DNA from: Clavelina lepadiformis | Lineage: Eukaryota > Chordata > Ascidiacea > Aplousobranchia > Clavelinidae | Direction of reading: 5' to 3' | Length of the DNA: 64,000 nucleotides | Assembly: GCF_947623445.1 (NCBI RefSeq) | Contig: NC_135248.1 | Location: forward strand, 558,001 to 622,000 | Part shown: positions 4,701 through 62,852 of the stretch, one piece after another | Layout of the letters: every line of letters starts with the position of its first letter | Numbering within the stretch: position 1 is the stretch's first letter | Program-made: the position numbers and the translations under genes | The notes under the pieces: model-generated | The model's database searches: none | What the model was told of the DNA's origin: nothing | What the model saw: only the letters and a program-made list of their open reading frames with translations

Positions 4701-7700
4701 ATGAGGGGCCACACACCGGTTGAGAAGCGTTGACGTACAAAATAAGTACCAGGAAGGTGTAGTGATGCCTGGACGCGTAGAACCTATGCAGGACCGCATC
4801 CTTCACCCTCTGTCGGAATCGAAGAACTTCGAGACGATGTTCACTCATCATGCCTGGTGAGATAGACATCATATAACGAACATGTTAAAATATTTAAACT
4901 CTTAAAATATATGCGACAGACTTCATGTTTTATTAACGACTAAATTGTTTCGAACGAGACACTGGTCCTTTCTGAGAGAATAAACCACTAAATACACGAC
5001 GATTTCATCAAATGTCATCCAACTTAGCTTAGTAGTTTATACTCTGATGAAGGGCCAGTGTTTGGCCTGAAATATGTTAGTAGTAAATAAAATGTGAAGC
5101 GTGTTGCATTTTTTGTAATTCTTGCAACTACTTGGCACAAGAAATCTATGTCATCCCTCATCAAGTTATGCTTAAAATATACTTTTATAAATAGAGAAAA
5201 ACTTGGTCCTGCTTTGACAGAACACAAACATGACGCAATAAAGTATTGGAATTGTCAGATATAATAATTGTATTGTAGAAAGTGAGCATTGCTATTCTCG
5301 CCACTACATTTCATGGACATCAAAATATCTTCGGAGAACTTCAAGATTGCACAAACCTCTATCGAGCTTGCGGTCAGCAATGACTTGCAACGAATCTTTC
5401 TCTCTCAGCCGTCGTTCGTAAACCGTGAAAGCTGAGTCCATCACCTCGTGCTCCTGGGATGGGATCATTGTCATATTCCGGAACTCATTCACCTCCTCGT
5501 TTCGGAGCTGCAGGATGCGCAGACGATTCATCCGGGCAAACTCTTCGTCAGCGATGAAGTTGAACTCCTCCTACATAGACATCATATCTATGAAGTTCAC
5601 ACCTCTCAATGCAAAGATATTCGTTGCCGCACCTGAAGCTGCTCGAGCCTGAAGTAGTCCGGGGCATAAAGGAACCCATGTCCGTCCTGTCTGCTCTCCA
5701 TGAATGGAATGAGGGCTGCATTCTCTGGGTCATTTGGGTCAAGTCGAGAATCCTGGACCCATTTTGAGAGAGATTCTGGATTCTGGATCCCCTCCGCACC
5801 GATGGCACTAACAGGGTCCACGTTTTGTGATGGGTTGATTACATTTAAGGGGTCAGCAGCATTATTGGTAAGTCCTTTTGGGGCAAGAACATGCCCCTCT
5901 CCATCTAACCCCCACGACACGCTGCATATCAATTGACCCTTGGTGCTTATTGATGTGGGGTTGGTATCATGTTGACGGAGGGTGAACGGGGTACTGCTGC
6001 CCACCCCCTCGTGCTCAAATGTCTCCACCCGCTCACTGACGAAGGGGACCATGCCCAGCTGCACGTTCCCAGAATGCACGGTGACATCAGGAACCTTCAA
6101 GAAAGTTTCGCTGAACGTCGTGTTTCGAACAAGACCTGCTTCCAGGAACTGAACCTGGATTGGAAGAGAAATGACGAAATGTAAGTAAAATGACGGAGGC
6201 ACCCGCATTAGGGACAGCCCCCACCTTCAGACTCTCCGGCCACTGAGCGATGCGGACCCTGAAGATCGATCCGAAGTGAAGTTTGAAATCACTCGTCAGT
6301 GTTTTCGGCTCCGTGAGGAAAACGTCTTTTCCGTTAAAGACGATCTTGAGGATGATCGCGGACTTCTGCATCGCCTTCCTCCTCGATGACTCTCCTACTG
6401 GTACGCCACCTACTGGTGTGATGTTTGCGGTGTTGGTCAGTTGGAGCGAGATTCGGTCCTCACCTGTGTATTAGAGGACACTCATGGTTGTATATCGCAG
6501 CTCTGAGAAGTTTTTCTGCCTCTCACAATCAAATAACAATTGGTTGACATTAAGCTGCATCACAATACATGAACATCGTGAAAATATGTCGTTTCAATCA
6601 GGCGCATTTTAAATATTTTTTCTACTGCAAATGTCATGGACATGCCATGTTTTGATGACACGAGGAAAGTGGTGGCATTCTATCAACGCTCATCTATCAC
6701 AATCACTCATAGCAAGCAATCTGCCCTGATCTGCCACTCATCACCACACCTGGGTTCCTCCTGTGCTCTAGGAGCAGGTTCTTCACTTCGATGCGGACTC
6801 TCTCCTCATTAAACGCCTCGGGCTTCTCAGGTTTCTGAGGTTTATCGACGTTTCCACTGATCATGATCTCGCCCTCGTCATCTTCGTCACCCTGCAAACA
6901 AATTGTGATGTCATAATGGCATGGACACATGGTGATGTCATAATAGCTCGATAACTTCTTCTAACCTCAACTGCATCGAGAAGATTTTCTTTTGAGCCGC
7001 GTTGATCTCTTCGTCGTTGTTGTTTGATCTTCAACCGATTCCTCTTCCACTCCTGGAGGATAAAAACTTCCAGTTGAAGCGAAATGAAACAGGAGGTTGG
7101 CAATCTTAGTAACGCTTCAAGCAAGCAGTGGTGATACAGACATCTTATATGCAAACCACGAGACCTGTAGTTGCGCTTGATACTTCCGATGCCTCTCTTT
7201 GTAAGGAGCAACGATTGTGACATCATACTCTTCCTTCTTCTCTCTGACCTCACTCTCCACCTCCTGGTCCCATCTTTGTTGGTCCTGATGCTGGTTCACC
7301 TGGAAAGGAAAGTTGAATAAATTGTGAATGAAATATGGCATCAGATGAAGAGTTATCGTTAAACAGACAACTCGAGATTCTTGTCACTTGATCATCCTCA
7401 GCACAGAGTGAATATTTTATGCTCATTATGGTTGATATTTCGTTGAGAAACAAAATCAACACGAACAATAAGAAATCTATTCTTGACACCTCCTCTCGCT
7501 TCACGGTGAGCTTCGTGGTTGTGTTCGTGAAGTCTTGGAGCTCTCGGAGTGACTTTATCTCACCCCACTCAGCGATGATCCCCCGCATCAAGTCACGCTC
7601 CGACGACTCTGCGGTGTTCAGTTGCTGTGAAGTTCTTCGGATCTCCGCCGTGAAATCATTGATGCGTGTCTCGTGCGCCTCGACCCCGGCTGGAAGATAA

Positions 7701-19749: not shown

Positions 19750-20211
19750 ATGATGCTTCAAGTCAGTGGCGTAGCCAGAAAAAAAATGTCGTTGCAGGAT
19801 ATTGAGATTTTCTCGACTGAGACTGATGCCACATTTACTCTCATGTCAAATGATGATTTTCTTCAGTTAGAGAATGAAGGAAATACAACATTCGATGGTG
19901 ATGTTGTTGATTCTGAAAACTTAAATAAAAGAAACTCAAATGTGGAATACAACAAATTGGCTACGAAATTTCCTGATAAAAACATAACAATAAGTAAGAG
20001 CAATACTAGAGAGATTCAGTGTTCAACAATTGTTGAGAATCACAAAATAAAGCATTTCTGTTGCACTGTTTGTGATAAATCTTTCACACAAAAAGCAAAC
20101 ATGAAAATTCATTTAAAGAATCACATGAGTATATGGTTGTACCAATGTCGAGTTTGTTGCAAATCATTTTCACAAAACAGCAATTTGCAGCGTCATATGA
20201 AAGTCCACTAA
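19750..20211 (+). CDS. Small protein with two C2H2 zinc fingers (single exon)
   Basis: The 153-aa uninterrupted frame has an acidic N-terminal half. Its C-terminal half holds two C2H2 fingers: CCTVCDKSFTQKANMKIHLK followed by NH, and CRVCCKSFSQNSNLQRHMKV followed by H. The protein stops right at the last histidine. Intron-less structure and an abrupt end suggest either the last exon of a longer zinc-finger gene or a truncated copy. The first methionines follow AAGTCAGTGGCGTAGCC, a phrase often found at repeat ends, so the true start is uncertain. A DNA-binding role is expected from the finger family; targets are unknown. Confidence 0.55.
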   Translation: MMLQVSGVARKKMSLQDIEIFSTETDATFTLMSNDDFLQLENEGNTTFDGDVVDSENLNKRNSNVEYNKLATKFPDKNITISKSNTREIQCSTIVENHKIKHFCCTVCDKSFTQKANMKIHLKNHMSIWLYQCRVCCKSFSQNSNLQRHMKVH

Positions 20212-30500: not shown

Positions 30501-33500
30501 TGACGTCACAGACGACGGAGAGGTAATCGATGTTCAGCACCTTGTAGAAGACACCGTGGTAGACTGCCTTCGCGAGAAGAATGTCTTTGTGCAGCCGTTC
30601 AACCACTTTGATCAGATGTTTCACCTCTCTACCTATGTATGACGTCATGATGATGTTATAATTACAATTATTTGTGTGTTCTAGATCGTGTCAATGGTTG
30701 CTAAAGACAATGACGTCACAATGAAATAAAACGAGTTCAAACGGTGTACCCTTATTTTGTTATCATATTACATCCATCTGCTTCGATAGAAAGAATATTA
30801 AGTATCAGGTAGCTCCAGGCTGATTTTAAGAGCAAACTGGAGACAACCGATTGTTCAAAAAATGAACGTTAGAGCCAAGAAATTAGTCCTGAAATTTTTT
30901 TATTTGCCGAAGTGTCCAGTTAAAATCAAACCAATACTAACTAACTCGAAACGTCTGCAAATAAAGGCTTCAATTGTTTTCGCGCTGATTATGGAGTCCG
31001 CATGCACGGTGAAATTCTTGCGCGCATGGTTCTACTGCGTACCAACCTCCGAAGTCGTCATTCTCCTCCTGTTGATCTTCCGCGATTTCCAGCATCATGT
31101 CGTTGTGGATGGTGACGTAATGCACCTCAGTTCCGCCCTGCAGCGCCACAGTGACGGCATAATTAACTTCCGGTAGCAGGGTGGGGTTGACGATCCGCAC
31201 CATCCGGTACAATCCCATCCCGTGCAACTTCTTGAACAAGAGCAGTTGACTTCCCAAGTGGATGACGTAATTCTCCTGCGGGGAATCCCGGTCAGATAAG
31301 TACGTCACAAAGCATAGTAATTGAATACGAGTTTGTTACCTGTTTCAAGGAGAAGAGTCGCCTGTGGTCTTCTATCTTCTTGCACTCGGACTTGATGAAG
31401 GAGGCGAAGGATTCCTGGAGAGAGTCGACCGAGAAGGTGGGTGCAGGACCGAGAGGAGTCGAGCTCTTGCTGTCCAGCTCAACCAGAAGGCTTTCCAGGA
31501 ACACGCTCTCGAGTCCCGGGGTATTCTGGAATGTCCAAGCAAATTTATTTACACAGACCCTGACGACTTCCTGTATGCGTTGAGCTAATCGCAATCCACC
31601 TCGAGGTGAGCTTCGGTGTACACTTCCCACCGCATGACGGCGGCTGAGAGTGGGTGCATGTAATGTTGTTTCTCAAATTCGTGGAGCAGAATTTTGGCGG
31701 ATGGTGAGAGTTTTCCATCCCAGTATTTCGCTTTTTTATCTGCTCCCTGCAAGATATTCATAAATTCAAAACCTGCGGAAAAGCACGCTTCGCAGAATCC
31801 GCTCTTTTCTATTGCCCGCGTTCGAACACTTCCTGTAGTGTTTGACCGTAGAGTCGTAGACCCTTTAAAACTTTGAGCGAATTACGCTGTTTATGGGGTT
31901 TATTGATGTCATCAGGTACCAGGTTCCTTTTGTTACATCATAAAGTGATTGAACCCAAGTCAACTTTAAGCAAAGCGCGCGTCAGCTTTCGTTTCCAAAT
32001 GAGGTAGTTATCTTTCCTTGTTACGTCATCCATCGTTTATAAAACAAAATTTCGTAGAAGGAAGTTGTTGATATATGACGCGATTTAAAGCGGTTCATCG
32101 CGCACAGCTGATTGTTAAGTCACTCAACCAAGTAACTAGTGCGGTTAATAATCAACCAAATGTCTCAATAGAACGATAATCTCGACCAAATATATCGGCA
32201 CCATGGTCAAATGTCGCCAGATTTGACGACGCCTTTATGACATAATAAATCGATCACCTGACTTCGATTGTTGAAATGTTCTCGAACAATCTCTCGAAGT
32301 AATCCGGCGTATATGACGTCATCAGAATAGTCCAGAGCCTGGTGTGGTTTATCCTTGCGGACCGATAAATTCAACTTAAGTTTGATTCGTCCCGACACGT
32401 TCTGAAAGCGAATATAAGTATTATGACATCATAAGTACAATGAAACAACGTCGGGTCTGACCTGAAGAGAGTGCGAGGTTCGAAGTTTGAGCCAAGTCTC
32501 GACGCCAGACGCGGGAACACTCGAGAGGGGGATCGAATTGAATCCGAGGAAATCGTCCTTTTCGCTCCGCAGCGTCACAGACTGCGCGATTTCTGTGACG
32601 TATCTGCAAATAAATCAATTACGTCATAAATCACAATTGCCGGCGTGTTAGAATTATTTGCCTGAAAATTTAAATCGAGACGGACGTGGCGAGCCGAGGC
32701 ATTTACCGAAGCTACCAGTTGATTACTGTCGATATTTTATATTGTTACGTCATTTCACGCGGAAGTGCTTTTATGAGTGCGTTCTAAGCCGGAAAGCAAA
32801 TGGCGTTAAGCGCGATCATAAGATAAAAAGCGTGAAAACTTCCTGTAATATGAGTCAAAACATGCTGAATATTTGCAAAACATTTAGCCGAGTGGAGACA
32901 GTCAGCCTGAACATGCATGGCTGCCTGAATTAGTTTGATATCTCCTGATAACTTTAGATAAGAGCAGATTTGTCATCAAAGATTTGTTTGTGAAGAATCT
33001 GTACCTGCCCACACCTTTCATTCCTTTCACCTTCTTTTCTGTTTCGTCACTATCCCAAACTTGAACTTGGAGATACCTATCCTTGATATCATCTCGGTGA
33101 ATTTCAAGTTCAAAGCTTTCTTTCCATTCCGGGTTCAAGTTCGATGTCGCCACAGACGTTTGTTTTATGACGTCATGTTTATTAGGTTTAAAAGTTTGAA
33201 ATTGGCCATTGCTGACAACGGACAGCAAGCAGTAGGGGTCTGACGATCCATCGACATCTTTTATCGCTAAATTTTCCGCCTTTTCGACGACGACTTCAAG
33301 AACGCAGCGATTGGACAAAGTTTTCTCACAAATCTTGTTGACAAGTCCTTCATGTTGGTTGTCCGATATTTTAAACAAATTCTTCGCGTAAAGCAGTAGT
33401 GTTCGCTCGGGTAAATCTTTCGCCTGACTTTCAATTCTGTTCAAAATCACGTCCAAACTGCTCTGATAAACCTGGCTTCGATAATTCTTCGAGTTGCCGA

Positions 33501-33866
33501 TTTTTTTCATCAAACTTGCATAATTTTCTTCTTCGGCCATCTTATCTTTCCGACGCCTTCGAAATGCAGATTTTTGCCCGCGTTGCCTGCCATACTGCAA
33601 TTTGGTGTGTTCTGACTCCAAATTGCTCTTCGCCTCCTGAAGATAATAAAGGAAACAAAGGAATTCATTTGGCGCTCACACTTTTTGTCACGAGATTAAC
33701 TAATATTTGCATAACTAGGGTGTAGTTGAAGTATTGTACCAAATATTTCCAAAGTAATCAAACTAAACCACAGACAACACAAATGTCACAATCACAGTAA
33801 ATGTGCAAAATTGTATGACCAAACAAAGTAAGTTTTATTTAACAAAGCAATTACCTGTGACGTCAT
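27553..33866 (-). CDS. UNC13D: UNC13D (Munc13-4), C2-MUN-C2 exocytosis protein
   Basis: Munc13-4 primes secretory granules for calcium-triggered fusion by opening syntaxin through its MUN domain. Minus exons follow human UNC13D. The putative start is a 12-nt exon (33866-33855, MTSQ) that joins in phase to EAKSNLE at about 33636. Next come VYQSSLDVILNRI and the first C2 domain (IKDVDGSSDPYCLLS, NPEWKESFELE, VWDSDE), at 33003-33600. MUN-region landmarks are WFRPALLRWLQ and HTSSAVDTIGCL (29813-30000), WPDPVDAYTIALRL (29560-29720) and FFHADGDGISEAALQSTSFK (28600-28720). The second C2 domain has KLLPLDLNGLSDPFVQ (about 28300-28360) and SVLDHDVISANDLEGEAVLP (28010-28090). The tail LLEGRTSYDKDADEF matches the family end. 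Choosing UNC13D over BAIAP3 rests on the MUN-region matches. Aspartates of the C2 calcium loops are present in both domains. Some MUN exons are approximate. Confidence 0.9.
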
Positions 33867-50639: not shown

Positions 50640-51140
50640 TTACGGAATGAAGAGTTACAGAAAGCAAGAAAATATCAACGATGTTTAATAAATTCTTACA
50701 TTCCGGTAGTGAGTTCTCACATCCAACCACCGAAGCTTTTACGGTATCTGAGACTAGTCTACATGGTTTCTAGGACAGCGTCATATGTATTATCAATTCA
50801 TTGTTTCAAGATTTTTACTGCGACAAAAATGATCAGAGCATCAATATAGCCTACAAAGCTTTGTTATCTGCCGTGCTTGGGCAGTCGTACGTTTGCGTTC
50901 TGCCAAATGGACGTCACGAAATGAACATTGGTCAGAGTTATGATGGAGAGTGATGTGGCACCATTCCACTGGCCGGGCCAGCAACAATCTTTACAACCGG
51001 TCTGCATTGGAATGTCACCAATTCTCGGATGAAATTTGGCGAACTTATCAGTTCTAGCAACAAGTTGGATGGCTCGGGAAAAGTAACAATAACCACAGAC
51101 AACAGCATTGTTTGGACAATGGATGTGGAAAAAATACCTG
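50640..51140 (+). pseudogene. Decayed copy of the first TPK paralogue (5' flank joined to C-terminal domain)
   Basis: From about 50861 to 51140 the sequence is close to 53326-53600, the thiamin-binding C-terminal domain of the gene at 52850. It retains GQSYVCVLP, GLHWNVTNSRMKFGELISSS and DGSGKVTITTD. The frame carries a stop in the GEWCG motif. Upstream, 50640-50840 resembles the 5' flank at 52680-52850, so the N-terminal half of the gene is deleted between the two homologous pieces. No intact product is possible. Confidence 0.85.
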
Positions 51141-51411
51141 ACATTATACAATATACAGACAAAGTGGCGACTGACCAGGCGATTTTATTTTAAAGTTCAT
51201 TATGGTTCAGTTATGCATATATGCAAAATTTCAAGAAAACACATCCACAATACGTTTGTGTTGCCAAGGTCACCAATTTTGCCTGCTTGGTCTTAATATC
51301 TATGTGTGTCACTTACATGGTCACATTCTATTCTTCCCGGCATGGGCATTATGCTTTGTCATTTCTTTCTATGATAATTCAACTTGTTAACCGATTTGAA
51401 AACAGTTAACG

Positions 51412-51620
51412 AACGAACATCTTTCACGCCGTAAAGAAGAACTTTGCAAACGTAGGAAAGAAGTTCACTCATGGCTTGATCAGCGGTGATTTTGACTCAT
51501 TGAAATGCCATCAATTATAGCAAGAATTTTCAAAAAAGGAGAAAACAGATTACGTGTTTCTTTCTTGGAACGTGACGGATGTCGATGTGGCGGGAAATTG
51601 TTTCTTGTCAAATTGCCCTT
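51412..51620 (+). pseudogene. Decayed copy of the second TPK paralogue (N-terminal piece)
   Basis: This aligns to 54083-54180 of the gene at 53907: it reads IFHAVKKNFANVGKK and then GLISGDFDSL, retaining the GDFDS motif, before stops. The spacer 51140-51410 also resembles 53600-53880. Together with the preceding pseudogene, the whole two-gene cassette was duplicated here and then lost large parts. Confidence 0.75.
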
Positions 51621-52849: not shown

Positions 52850-53605
52850 ATGGAAAATGACCAGAGAACCAATCAACAAGACAGTTGTGAAGATAAAAGG
52901 ATTTTTTCTCCACTTTCTTTCTTAGAAGATGATTCTGGAAATGACAAATTTCTTTCTGTTCTTGTTGGTGATGTTACCACCACTGGAGCAAGTGAAAGAT
53001 TTTCTAAACTTGTACGAAACGTTTGGAATAAATCGGGAATTAGAGCTTGTGTCGGATCTGGACAAAAATTTCTTTTCACTGATTCTGAAGAACCAATGCT
53101 GCCCTCTAACAGCAGTATTACTCAGGAGCCAAATGAAATGTTCTCGGAGAAAGACAATGAAATATTCTTACATTTGGAAACACTGATTCAACAAAGTCCC
53201 AAAGATTCAAGAAAGTTTTCAAAGGTCATAATCTTCAGCGACATGAACCTTCCATTGTTCAACCTCCTCATTTATATGCAGAGCATGCTAAGTTGCTCAC
53301 AAAAATGCCAGCACCCTCGTTTGTTGTTATCTGCCGTGCTTGGGCAGTCGTACGTTTGCGTTCTGCCGAGTGGACGTCACGAAATGAACATAGGCCAGAA
53401 TTATGATGGAGAGTGGTGTGGCATCATTCCACTGGCCGGGCCAGCAACTATCTCTACAACCGGTCTGCATTGGAATGTCACCAATTCTCGAATGAAATTT
53501 GGTGAACTTATCAGTTCTAGCAACAAGTTGGATGGCTCGGGAAAAGTAACAATAACCACAGACAATAGCATTGTTTGGACAATGGATGTGGCAAAATATA
53601 CCTGA
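52850..53605 (+). CDS. TPK paralogue A: thiamin-binding domain kept, catalytic motifs lost (251 aa, intronless)
   Basis: Thiamin pyrophosphokinase transfers pyrophosphate from ATP to thiamin. The C-terminal third is a well-kept TPK thiamin-binding domain: GEWCGIIPLAGPATISTTG, LHWNVTNSRMKFGELISSSN, DGSGKVTITTDNSIVWTMD. It includes the tryptophan of TTGLxWN that stacks on thiamin. The N-terminal domain is TPK-like only in outline (FLSVLVGDV, GIRACVGSGQKFLF). DGG reads VGSG, GDFDS is absent, TPDQxxTDF is absent, and GGLxGRxDH is replaced by FSDMNLPLFN. A stretch rich in Asn/Glu/Ser replaces the catalytic loop. The 251-codon frame is open without introns. As an isolated subunit it should be inactive. 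It lies 301 bases before paralogue B on the same strand. Confidence 0.85.
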   Translation: MENDQRTNQQDSCEDKRIFSPLSFLEDDSGNDKFLSVLVGDVTTTGASERFSKLVRNVWNKSGIRACVGSGQKFLFTDSEEPMLPSNSSITQEPNEMFSEKDNEIFLHLETLIQQSPKDSRKFSKVIIFSDMNLPLFNLLIYMQSMLSCSQKCQHPRLLLSAVLGQSYVCVLPSGRHEMNIGQNYDGEWCGIIPLAGPATISTTGLHWNVTNSRMKFGELISSSNKLDGSGKVTITTDNSIVWTMDVAKYT

Positions 53606-53906
53606 TATTTTCATAATCTATTATGGTGCAATTATGCAAAGTGAGAAATTCAACTGAAAATATGCAATGCATGTGTTGCCAATTTCTACGATTTTATTTC
53701 AGTCGTACAATATAATACAAAGGCAATTACATTTCCTTTTATTCACCATTGGCATTACGCATTTTTATTTATTTTTTTATGTGTTCAGTTGTGATTAATT
53801 TATTTCATAGCTGTTCCCACAGATATGTTTCCTCATAGTTTCTCCATTTTGAATCCCTGCCATCCATTTGTTCCAGGTTGGTTGTAGGCGCGTGCGCAAT
53901 ATAGCA

Positions 53907-54689
53907 ATGAGCACAGAACTTGTTACATTTAAGTTTTTGGATTCTTCGCTTGATGACAATGTTGTTCTCGTTCTCTTGAACCAGACATGGGTGTCACCAG
54001 AAGATGGCGATAGCGCATGCTACAGCAGATTTAAGAGATTGTGGGATAACGCCGTGTTCAAAGCTGCCGTAGACGGCGGCACAAACATCCTTCACGCCGT
54101 GAATAAGAATCTTGCGAACGGAGGAAAAACGCTTATTCCTGACTTGATCAGCGGTGACTTTGACTCGATTGATGTTTCTTTGCTCGATTTTTATCAGAGT
54201 CAGGGTGTAGAAGTCGTGCGGACACCAGACCAAAACTTCACAGACTTCACAAAGTGCATCAGAATTATCGCCGAGAAATACGACAGTGGTCAGATCCCAG
54301 CAAGTGTAACGGACATTGTTTGTTTATTGGGGCAGGCTGAGCGCTTTGACCACACGATGGCGAACATTAACACATTGTACGAAGCAAATTCATTGTTGCC
54401 AAGTTCTGTTCGTGTCACTTTACTCTTGAAAGACTCGTCTGTCTGTTTGCTGCGTCCCGGACTCACAACAATTCAGAAACCTTGCAATGGCGCCACCCGA
54501 TGTGGACTATTTGCAGTTGGAAACCCTGCAGATGTCTCAACGAATGGGTTTAAAGTGGATCTGAGGAGCGCTTCCCTAAACTTTCACTCACTGATGAGAA
54601 ATTGGTTTGAATTTGACCAAGAGATGGCGACAGTGAGCACTGATAGTGAGTTGGTTTTAGTTTTGCCGCTTTGTTGTAACGACACCTGA
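53907..54689 (+). CDS. TPK1: TPK paralogue B: catalytic aspartates kept, thiamin-binding half diverged (260 aa, intronless)
   Basis: The start MSTELVTFKF is chosen over the upstream in-frame ATG at 53868, whose extra 13 residues (rich in Arg/Cys) do not look conserved. The N-terminal Rossmann-like domain keeps family motifs in order: FKAAVDGGTNIL (DGG), PDLISGDFDSID, RTPDQNFTDFTKC and LLGQAERFDHTMANINTLYE (RxDH). The C-terminal domain is recognisable (CGLFAVGNPADVSTNGFKVD) but has lost the TTGLxWN tryptophan, the SxSN motif and the terminal LLWT. Those positions read TNGFKVDL, RNWFEFD and LVLVLPL. The frame is uninterrupted and single-exon in an otherwise intron-rich region, which suggests origin by retroposition. 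Whether it is active alone is doubtful. Confidence 0.87.
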   Translation: MSTELVTFKFLDSSLDDNVVLVLLNQTWVSPEDGDSACYSRFKRLWDNAVFKAAVDGGTNILHAVNKNLANGGKTLIPDLISGDFDSIDVSLLDFYQSQGVEVVRTPDQNFTDFTKCIRIIAEKYDSGQIPASVTDIVCLLGQAERFDHTMANINTLYEANSLLPSSVRVTLLLKDSSVCLLRPGLTTIQKPCNGATRCGLFAVGNPADVSTNGFKVDLRSASLNFHSLMRNWFEFDQEMATVSTDSELVLVLPLCCNDT

Positions 54690-55217
54690 TGCTGTTTTAA
54701 GTAAAAACTGGTTTATTTATTAAATGTATAAATTTTGTAGCTTGTCCTATTTCACATTATTCGTATCATGTCATTATCCTGCTGTCATATCACGCCTTTA
54801 CTCTTCTATTTGCATTGCGTAATTATCACTGCTAGCTACACAACTTAGAAGTTATCATTGTGCTTGCCAATTTGCATAATATTGACGACAATTATTTATT
54901 AATATACCATGTTACCATTAAGCATCATGCTTTGTAAAAGGCTTGTATAATTGCCATTATTTTTGCTATCGCAAAGAAAATATGCAGCAAAGTTTCACTG
55001 AATTTAAAGTTCTTTTAACTTTTAGCTGAACCAAGGTTAGTGACGTCACACTTTGTTAATTTTCCAGCAATTCAACATTAAAAATCGTGAGTTTCATCGG
55101 TTTCTTGATCTAAACAACATTTTTCGTCGTCTCATTGAACAAGCAAGTTTGTCAAATTTTTATCATGACCTGTCAATCAGGAAGATTCTTTCTTCATCTT
55201 CGATGACTCCTCCGTTG
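54690..55217. other. Spacer between TPK paralogue B and tetraspanin gene
   Basis: A/T-rich; the two genes converge here. The plus-strand frame 55053-55367 is largely the antisense of the tetraspanin 3' exon. Confidence 0.45.
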
Positions 55218-56718
55218 TTAGGTGATGTGTACTTGTTGCCTCCGCGGCAAACTTCGCGATATTTTTGCCAGACCAGCTATCAAGGCAAAGTCCATAGCGA
55301 GGAGAGCGATCGTCGTCCACATCGCAGACTTGAGCGCGTTAAGGAGGAGCAAAAAGTAGACTTGTGAGCACGGATCAGCGTGAATATAAACAGCGTCGTC
55401 GACGTTGCACCACGTGACAATTTCGAAGTCGATCAACGCGATATAGTCTCTGTGCCTCCGGCGTGGGGCAACGCGAACCGCGTGGCAAGTTCCCGAGCTT
55501 GAAAATCTGTGACGACACGAGACTGGCACGATGGACTCGTTGTCCTTGCGGGGAATACCCTCCGCCCACTTGCTCCCGAACCAGTCGGTGAAGTTTAGCG
55601 CTCCGCAGCATAAGTTATCTGTCTGCAATCTGTCCCACTCCGCCTTGTACGCACTCCCCTTACTGTTCCAGCTCGAATAGCGTTCCGACAGCGTTTCGTT
55701 TAACCCGCTTTTAACGTCACTCTCAAAGTCCTTGTGAGTAAAATGCGAGAACATGATCGCAGCGATGACGTCAAAGACACTGATGTAAAGCAATCTGCAT
55801 GACGTCATAACAATAAAATCGTTAAGTTTTAAATCTATGAAAGCCATGACGTGAGTTTATCGCCGTTAACATGTTGGAGAGATGTTTACGTCATGGCTCT
55901 TTTAGTCGCCCGGTTATAAAACAGGAAACTACGTCACAACGAAAATAGAAAACGGACAAAACACATCACGTGAGAACGTAAATATATAACCATAGTTCGA
56001 TTATTGCCAAATAAGGCTGGAATCGCCAAATCCTTTGTCGCGTCGTTCGCTTGTAACAAACTCACATGAACATGACGGTGTTGATTTGACTGGACGTCGC
56101 TTTTTTTACGTCACCGGAGAAGACAAGCGTACGGAGCAGCCATGCGGAACACAAGAGGGAAGACACTCCTGCAGCAATCTGTGTGAAAATAAAATAAAAA
56201 CAGCAACTGGTTTGAGGATGGTCAACGGTATGACGTCATAAACTCTGACATGGGAGATTGCTCGAATATTTATTGAACTCTGTCGTAGAATGTTTGAACT
56301 GACCGACCAATAATTAACTTACAGCTTAACAAGGTGTTTCTATCACAAATTTCGCAATTCGCTCACTTCAATCACTCGGATCTAATTATGAACAAATCTG
56401 TCTCAAACTCACCAGAAACACAGCGCCCAGTCCGAACTGTCCGTTCTTGGCCAGGACCTGAGCTCGATTACCGTCCACTGTGGTCCAAGTGCCCAGAATC
56501 ACTTTGAATATTCCAAACACGACCACGAAAAGGATTTTCAGAGTCAGCAGGAAATATTTTCTCTCCTTTCTGATGGCACAGTCGTAGGTGAAGTCTTCGC
56601 TTGTATCTACGTCATAATCGCGCTCTTCGTCCTCAACTTCAAATCGAACTCGTCGCGGCGATTCGCTCAAGTTGTTTGCAGATGTCCCTGCCGTGACGTC
56701 ACCAGCTGCTGCACTCAT
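55218..56718 (-). CDS. Tetraspanin-like four-pass membrane protein
   Basis: Exon 1 (56718-56413) encodes a long acidic N-terminal tail, then KYFLLTLKILFVVVFGIFKV as the first membrane helix. An exon at 56178-56115 encodes IAAGVSSLLCSAWLLRTLVF, a possible second helix. The last exon (from about 55790 to 55218) has LLYISVFDVIAAIMF (third helix). The large loop carries the CCG signature (DNLCCGALNFTDWF) and four further cysteines. It ends with helix four, VYFLLLLNALKSAMWTTIAL followed by LAMDFAL. CCG plus six loop cysteines is the tetraspanin hallmark. The phases of the exon at 56178 and the last exon do not match directly, so one exon or border is missing. The partner proteins are unknown. The roughly 70-aa N-terminal tail is long for a tetraspanin. 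Confidence 0.75.
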
Positions 56719-62474: not shown

Positions 62475-62852
62475 ATGGAGATTTGTGGATATTATGCTCG
62501 TGTCGATCAACATGGTGCGCAGACACAGGAAATTATCAGAGCAGATTGCTTTTATAACATCGGGCTTTGTTTATATGAGCTCGGTGATTATGACGCAGCA
62601 ATATATGAAGCGGAGAAAAGTCTCCAACATTATGAACAACACAATGGTCCTGTGGATGACAGATGTAAATGTTATTCGTTGCTAGGTCGGTGTCATCTTG
62701 AGAGAGACGAATACGACGAAGCTTTAACATATTTTCAAACTGAACTTGATTTAAGGCTTCAGTTCGTTCCAAGCGGGAAACAAGATTCTGATAAAAAAAT
62801 CAAACTCGCCAGAAGCAATATTCAGATTTGCCAAAACTCGTTTACTCAGTGA
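62475..62852 (+). CDS. TPR-repeat protein exon
   Basis: The frame holds three tetratricopeptide-like units: ADCFYNIGLCLYELGDYDAA, then CYSLLGRCHLERDEYDEALT and a final helix IKLARSNIQICQN. The acceptor-like TGCGCAGACACAG just before 62531 suggests the conserved part may start there (EIIRADCF) rather than at ATG 62475. TPRs mediate protein-protein contacts; the family could not be named. It lies downstream of the promoter-like segment at 62061-62090. Confidence 0.6.
   Translation: MEICGYYARVDQHGAQTQEIIRADCFYNIGLCLYELGDYDAAIYEAEKSLQHYEQHNGPVDDRCKCYSLLGRCHLERDEYDEALTYFQTELDLRLQFVPSGKQDSDKKIKLARSNIQICQNSFTQ

What the first reader, a model, noticed from the sequence alone, without database searches (positions are those of the whole stretch)
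52850..54689. Two adjacent TPK paralogues with complementary loss: possible obligate heterodimeric thiamin pyrophosphokinase
Seen: paralogue A keeps the thiamin-binding C-terminal domain (TTGLHWN, ISSSN, VWTM) but lacks DGG, GDFDS, TPDQxxTDF and GRxDH. Paralogue B keeps DGG, GDFDS, TPDQNFTDF and RFDH but has lost the thiamin-stacking tryptophan (FKVDL), the SxSN motif and the terminal LLWT. Both frames are open over 250-260 codons, intronless, same strand, 0.3 kb apart. Known: TPK is a homodimer whose active site lies at the dimer interface, with the nucleotide/metal side from one subunit and the thiamin side from the other. Inference: A and B may pair so that one complete composite active site remains, making this a split enzyme formed by duplication and complementary degeneration. 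Random decay would not be expected to leave both frames open and each missing the opposite half.
Basis: partly seen in the sequence, partly recalled or inferred. Interest (0 to 1): 0.88.

Follow-up and report, generated by a model that had tools for sequence, protein, structure and literature searches.

The report
Vitamin B1 enzyme split between paralogues
In what appears to be a sea squirt genome, the enzyme that activates vitamin B1 was found only as two neighbouring gene copies, each missing the half of the active site that the other keeps, so the two proteins probably have to pair to make one working enzyme.

Summary
A (52850-53605) and B (53907-54689) are uninterrupted, full-length thiamin pyrophosphokinase (TPK) paralogues on one strand. 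B keeps 9 of 9 catalytic-chain residues, A 0 of 9; A keeps 5 of 5 thiamin-domain residues, B 0 of 5, though both keep D222. In a published TPK structure the two sides of each active site come from different chains (PMC2515308). Five of five control families were found, though some exons were missed. A's thiamin domain shows a purifying signal against its pseudo-copy (5 of 12 changes nonsynonymous, P=0.016), and neutral decay would hardly leave A's N-half open. Best reading: an A-B heterodimer with one composite active site. Pairing, expression and activity are untested; no structure could be run and no other tunicate searched. Against it: human W202G reportedly loses thiamine binding yet was active in vitro, so B alone may work.

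The parts
52850..53605 (+). Paralogue A: full-length TPK-like protein of 251 aa with intact thiamin-binding domain and degenerate catalytic domain
53321..53602 (+). A thiamin-binding half (TTGLHWN, ISSSN, DGSG, VWTM)
   Evidence: TPK_B1_binding 3.8e-18; residue map
53606..53906 (+). A-B spacer, 301 bp; no AATAAA or ATTAAA (weak variants AATACA 53714, AATATA 53709 and 53898), several acceptor-like CAG sites (ending 53702, 53788, 53822, 53876); compatible with, but no proof of, a trans-spliced operon
   Evidence: motif matches only
53907..54689 (+). Paralogue B: 260 aa TPK with intact catalytic domain and degraded thiamin site
54719..54724 (+). ATTAAA poly(A)-like signal after B
   Evidence: motif match only
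50861..51145 (+). Broken tandem copy of A's thiamin-binding half (A-psi), 95% identical DNA, with an in-frame TGA and a 1-base indel; A's first 157 codons have no counterpart in the match
51413..51503 (+). Broken fragment of B (B-psi) including the GDFDS region, 82% identical DNA

Best explanation
A and B form a heterodimeric thiamin pyrophosphokinase. Shown: the two genes are full-length TPK paralogues with complementary losses, and they are the only TPK-related genes found in the genome apart from broken pieces next to them. Inferred: B supplies the alpha/beta domain that binds MgATP and transfers pyrophosphate. A supplies, across the dimer interface, the beta-sandwich that holds thiamin by its stacking tryptophan and SxSN loop. 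Each A-B pair has one complete active site and one dead one. The state arose by tandem duplication of a homodimeric TPK followed by complementary degeneration, after which loss of either gene would remove TPP synthesis. Adjacency, and possibly a trans-spliced bicistronic transcript, would keep the two subunits balanced.
For: Complementary residue loss. Published structure: thiamine sits in the groove of the dimer, held by strands of monomer B and loops L6 and L7 of monomer A (PMC2515308). Whole-genome searches: one TPK_catalytic match (B); three TPK_B1_binding matches (A, A-psi, B); with B as query at E<=10 only B, the B-psi fragment and A; with A only A, A-psi and B. Controls: 5 of 5 other vitamin or cofactor families rang, one of them (PF08543) by a single lone stretch of 24.8 bits; 5 of 6 exon-sized pieces of mouse TPK score 28.3-50.5 bits, the sixth 21.5. 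Transket_pyr (a TPP-enzyme domain) matches lie at 5 places, so TPP is presumably needed. A's thiamin tract against A-psi: 7 synonymous and 5 nonsynonymous changes (one of them the TGA) in 89 codons, P=0.016 against neutrality. Neutral simulation of an N-half: 0 of 401 runs free of stops at 50% identity; P 0.00085 at 164 substitutions before indels.
Against: No interaction, expression or activity data. No structural model (15 tries answered busy). No other tunicate could be searched, so conservation of the pair is unknown. Human W202G reportedly keeps in vitro activity, so B alone may work. B keeps D222, and its thiamin domain is still over the Pfam cut-off (26.6 bits against 22). A's N-half is not recognised by Pfam and is weak by hhalign (probability 18.6%), so its ability to dimerise is assumed. 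Constraint on A's N-half rests on an open frame only, and its GC3 (0.338) is like the GC of the flanks. The matching test on the B fragment is not significant (9 of 16 nonsynonymous, P=0.084). The genome search misses exons: PF08543, 246 positions, rang at one 48-position stretch only, and the tool scores only the best candidates.
Confidence: 0.6

Rival explanations
1. B alone is the working TPK as a homodimer with a rebuilt or low-affinity thiamin site. A is a thiamin-binding protein with another role (storage, sensing) or a slowly dying duplicate.
For: B keeps the catalytic set and full length; D222 kept; thiamin domain still over the Pfam cut-off. Human W202G was reported active despite undetectable thiamine binding (PMC10446836 passage). 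A's N-half GC3 is like that of the flanks.
Against: B lost five conserved thiamin-domain residues; the aromatic stacker and the SN pair are present in the other 13 of 14 rows examined, A included. A's frame is open and its thiamin domain shows a purifying signal.
Confidence: 0.22
2. A is a prozyme-like allosteric activator: it pairs with B and switches B's own site on, without lending its thiamin-binding residues.
For: Trypanosome deoxyhypusine synthase is activated by a catalytically dead paralogue (PMC3663545, abstract and passages), and so is AdoMetDC (PMC5201418, search listing only).
Against: An activator need not preserve the substrate-side residues, yet A kept 5 of 5 while losing 9 of 9 on the other side.
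Confidence: 0.08
3. An ordinary TPK gene exists but is absent from this assembly or was missed by the search; A and B are side products.
For: Published BUSCO completeness for the matching species is 92.6% (PMC10884593 passages). The search misses some exons.
Against: k-mer completeness 100% and QV 67.4 for that assembly; 5 of 5 control families rang at least once; 5 of 6 mouse TPK pieces score above a lone stretch that was found; no further TPK match.
Confidence: 0.05
4. TPK function has been lost: the animal takes up ready-made TPP from food or symbionts, and A and B are decaying independently.
For: Broken pieces show that decay happens at this locus.
Against: Both frames are open, at a divergence where neutral decay would usually have closed A's; B's catalytic part is 41% identical to mouse with 9 of 9 key residues.
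Confidence: 0.05

Closest known systems
Homodimeric eukaryotic TPK (mouse 1IG3/2F17, human 3S4Y, yeast 1IG0, Candida 2G9Z/2HH9; organisms from PMC2515308 and PMC5740498)
   Same: Both proteins are homologues; same two-domain order; the composite interface site is the published architecture
   Different: There two identical chains make two complete sites; here two non-identical chains could make only one
Trypanosomatid deoxyhypusine synthase DHSc/DHSp (PMC3663545, abstract and passages seen)
   Same: Oligomer with interface active sites whose paralogues, one impaired and one dead, are fully active only together (3000-fold)
   Different: Different enzyme; described by its authors as activation by a dead paralogue; here the losses are split by domain and the genes are adjacent
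SMG5-SMG6 composite PIN nuclease (PMC12923823, passages seen)
   Same: A catalytically inactive relative completes the partner's active site
   Different: Regulated nuclease; SMG6 has weak activity alone

Membership tests
Thiamin pyrophosphokinase (Pfam PF04263 + PF04265) | TPK_catalytic domain over the curated cut-off, in B | tested here: met
   B: 108.4 bits against 30.7
Thiamin pyrophosphokinase (Pfam PF04263 + PF04265) | TPK_catalytic domain over the curated cut-off, in A | tested here: not met
   no match for A nor for its first 157 codons
Thiamin pyrophosphokinase (Pfam PF04263 + PF04265) | TPK_B1_binding domain over the curated cut-off | tested here: met
   A 62.6 bits, B 26.6 bits against 22
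Thiamin pyrophosphokinase (Pfam PF04263 + PF04265) | One chain carries both the catalytic and the thiamin-side residues | tested here: not met
   A 0 of 9 and 5 of 5; B 9 of 9 and 0 of 5
Thiamin pyrophosphokinase (Pfam PF04263 + PF04265) | Transfers pyrophosphate from ATP to thiamin | not testable with these tools
   needs an enzyme assay
Heteromeric enzyme of paralogues with shared active site | Two paralogues with complementary losses | tested here: met
Heteromeric enzyme of paralogues with shared active site | Parent enzyme has interface active sites | not tested
   not computed here; taken from print, PMC2515308
Heteromeric enzyme of paralogues with shared active site | No self-sufficient copy in the genome | tested here: met
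   with controls 21, 22, 54, 89-91; limited to this assembly and to a search that misses some exons
Heteromeric enzyme of paralogues with shared active site | The two chains bind and are active only together | not testable with these tools
   no complex modelling or assay; single-chain prediction was never accepted
Ascidian operon | Same-strand genes less than 100 bp apart or abutting after mapping of transcript ends, downstream gene SL trans-spliced | tested here: inconclusive
   301 bp between coding regions, no AATAAA or ATTAAA between, acceptor-like CAGs; transcript ends unknown. Criteria from PMC2760879 passages

The most novel reading that the evidence does not exclude
An animal's only TPK has become an obligate heterodimer with one composite active site, formed by tandem duplication and complementary loss of opposite halves, with the two single-exon genes kept together as an operon. 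If it is shared by related ascidians it would be a datable example of constructive neutral evolution in a core vitamin enzyme.
Probability: 0.45. Interest if true: 0.85.

Novelty: new variant of a known kind. Interest (0 to 1): 0.72.

Why it matters
A duplicated homodimer with interface active sites can in principle degenerate into an obligate heterodimer. Clean cases in animals, with the two halves lost in opposite copies and no backup gene, seem to be few (general knowledge, not searched). TPK is small, has solved structures, and human TPK1 has been assayed by yeast complementation (PMC5740498 passages), so the idea can be tested directly. It would also mean that vitamin B1 activation in this animal depends on two genes.

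Tried and rejected
Structure prediction was asked for in 15 calls (42 for B; 43, 46, 53, 58, 63, 67, 70, 72, 75, 79, 81, 83, 86, 87 for A), all answered 'busy'; no job ran, so there is no model and no fold search. An earlier count said 'submitted'; that is wrong. Searches for relatives in viral contigs found none. The genome-contig scan gave only bacterial TPKs, 12 of 117 pattern matches confirmed. I had no eukaryote collection other than the window's own genome, so dN/dS across tunicates, phylogeny and conservation of the pair could not be done.

Considered and rejected: A and B as exons of one gene (separate full-length frames; no further thiamin-binding match after B); A as random decay; A-psi as a working gene (in-frame TGA, indel, no N-half). 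DNA upstream of A against DNA upstream of A-psi is 50.2% identical, not above shuffles (maximum 50.7%); the A-B spacer against the psi spacer is 54.5%, barely above (maximum 53.1%).

Papers: searches on TPK structure and dimers (15 of 18 papers listed), TPK with tunicate words (15 of 3,168 listed, each with zero hits for the TPK term), paralogue heterodimers with thiamin (none), TPK with heterodimer, paralog or pseudoenzyme words (20 of 555 listed) and composite active sites (9 listed) showed no report of a split or heterodimeric TPK in the listings seen. Only an open-access library is held, so this is no proof of absence from print.

Limits: the A-psi comparison rests on 12 changes and leaves out the last codons after the 1-base indel; the B-psi comparison uses 28 codons. 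The simulations start from B's N-half as a stand-in ancestor, and the indel rate is my assumption. The flavokinase control is weaker than it looks: its 21.1-bit stretch lies beside a 57.7-bit one and there was one first-look candidate; some searches were added for that reason.

Full report
Observation. Two open frames on the + strand, A (52850-53605, 251 aa) and B (53907-54689, 260 aa from the first ATG), are uninterrupted and 301 bp apart. A matches only Pfam TPK_B1_binding; B matches TPK_catalytic and, weakly, TPK_B1_binding. phmmer against PDB chains puts animal TPKs at the top for both (A 5.1e-25; B 3.7e-36; mouse and human by the entry codes as used in PMC2515308 and PMC5740498). A profile comparison aligns A with TPK over residues 46-246 (98.5%), but its N-half alone gives only 18.6% and no Pfam match.

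Complementarity. Aligned to mouse TPK residues 50-258, A is 20.2% identical in the N-part (21 of 104) and 41.2% in the C-part (35 of 85); B is 41.0% (50 of 122) and 33.7% (28 of 83). At nine catalytic-chain positions (human D46, D71, D73, Q96, T99, D100, K103, R131, D133) B keeps 9 and A keeps 0. At five thiamin-domain positions (W202, S216, S218, N219, W237) A keeps 5 and B keeps 0. D222 is kept by both; T217 is S in A and N in B; L204 is V in A and L in B; B has changed D97 and Q134. In a 14-row alignment with 12 bacterial TPKs, only A lacks GDxDS and RxD[HQ], and only B lacks the SN pair and the stacking aromatic.

Why opposite halves matter. In Candida TPK, thiamine is held by beta-strands of one monomer and loops of the other (PMC2515308, sections 16-18). 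That paper also cites human mutants assigning D71, D73 and D100 to catalysis, Q96 and D133 to thiamine binding, and T99 and R131 to ATP (passage). The match of its serines to the human SxSN loop is my inference. So the two residue sets come from different chains in each site. An A-B dimer can rebuild one whole site; neither homodimer can.

No backup gene found. The window lies in a genome of 209,060,895 bases in 95 contigs. Contigs C1, C8 and C9 are 28,783,666, 19,509,797 and 15,725,681 bases, close to chromosomes 1, 8 and 9 (28.79, 19.51, 15.73 Mb) of Clavelina lepadiformis (PMC10884593, passages). The published assembly is 210,089,204 bases in 102 scaffolds, so the match is close, not exact, and the species is inference. 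Genome search gives one TPK_catalytic match and three TPK_B1_binding matches. B as query at E<=10 gives B, the B-psi fragment and A; A gives A, A-psi and B.

Sensitivity. Five of five control families rang: flavokinase, Transket_pyr at five places, DHFR by two separate stretches of 35.7 and 18.9 bits, CoaE, and Phos_pyr_kin by one lone stretch of 24.8 bits. Five of six exon-sized mouse TPK pieces score 28.3 bits or more, the sixth 21.5. Exons do get missed: Phos_pyr_kin (246 positions) rang only once. A very divergent or unassembled TPK is not excluded.

Broken third copy. At 50861-51145 a copy of A's C-half is 95% identical but has a TGA and a 1-base indel. It is followed by a diverged spacer (best segment 67% over 93 columns; overall barely above shuffles) and a B fragment at 51413-51503 (82%). 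So an A-then-B order existed when these pieces were copied. Synonymous divergence is 0.10 in the A tract and 0.33 in the B fragment (about 7 of 68 against 7 of 21 sites, P=0.018), which points to later gene conversion or a second copying of the thiamin-binding half. In the A tract 5 of 12 changes are nonsynonymous where 75% are expected (P=0.016); in the B fragment 9 of 16 (P=0.084). At least one copy of the A tract, presumably A, has been constrained.

Is A decaying? Simulated neutral decay of a TPK N-half left no stop-free frame in 401 runs at 50% identity, 3 at 60%, 9 at 70% and 41 at 80%. A larger run gives P 0.03 at 80 and 0.00085 at 164 substitutions, before indels. Against this, A's N-half has GC3 0.338, like the GC of six flanking stretches (0.313-0.357), while A's C-half (0.463) and B (0.487) do not. 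Its sequence has drifted far, as would be expected for a domain kept only as scaffold and dimer partner.

Gene arrangement. The A-B spacer has no AATAAA or ATTAAA, and acceptor-like CAG sites precede B; ATTAAA follows B. Ciona operons are abutting, and 60% of their first genes are single-exon (PMC2760879 passages). Co-transcription is plausible and untested.

Against. Human W202G reportedly had no measurable thiamine binding but higher activity in vitro (PMC10446836, passage; primary paper not seen). B could therefore work alone. Pairing, expression and relatives remain untested, and no structure prediction ran.

Verdict. The heterodimer is the best-supported reading (0.6). By working principle it resembles trypanosome DHSc/DHSp (PMC3663545, passages) and SMG5-SMG6 (PMC12923823, passages). 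By descent both chains are TPKs, though neither alone meets the single-chain definition.

Noticed in passing
50861-51503: Partial tandem copy of pieces of the A-B unit, pseudogenised, with the thiamin-binding tract far more similar (95%) than what surrounds it: likely gene conversion, starting near the domain boundary of A.
   Followed up: yes
55218-55844 (-): Tetraspanin open frame (Pfam PF00335, 3.4e-15) convergent with B.
   Followed up: no
5606-6208 (-): CC2D2A N-terminal C2 domain stretch (PF15625, 5.7e-17); CC2D2A is recalled as a cilium gene.
   Followed up: no
19750-20208 (+), 32902-33621 (-), 62475-62849 (+): C2H2 zinc-finger, C2-domain and TPR stretches (5 of 8 stretches tried there matched a family).
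   Followed up: no
52850-53320 compared with 53321-53605: Change inside A from GC3 0.338 to 0.463 near the domain boundary; unexplained, perhaps GC-biased conversion of the C-half.
   Followed up: partly
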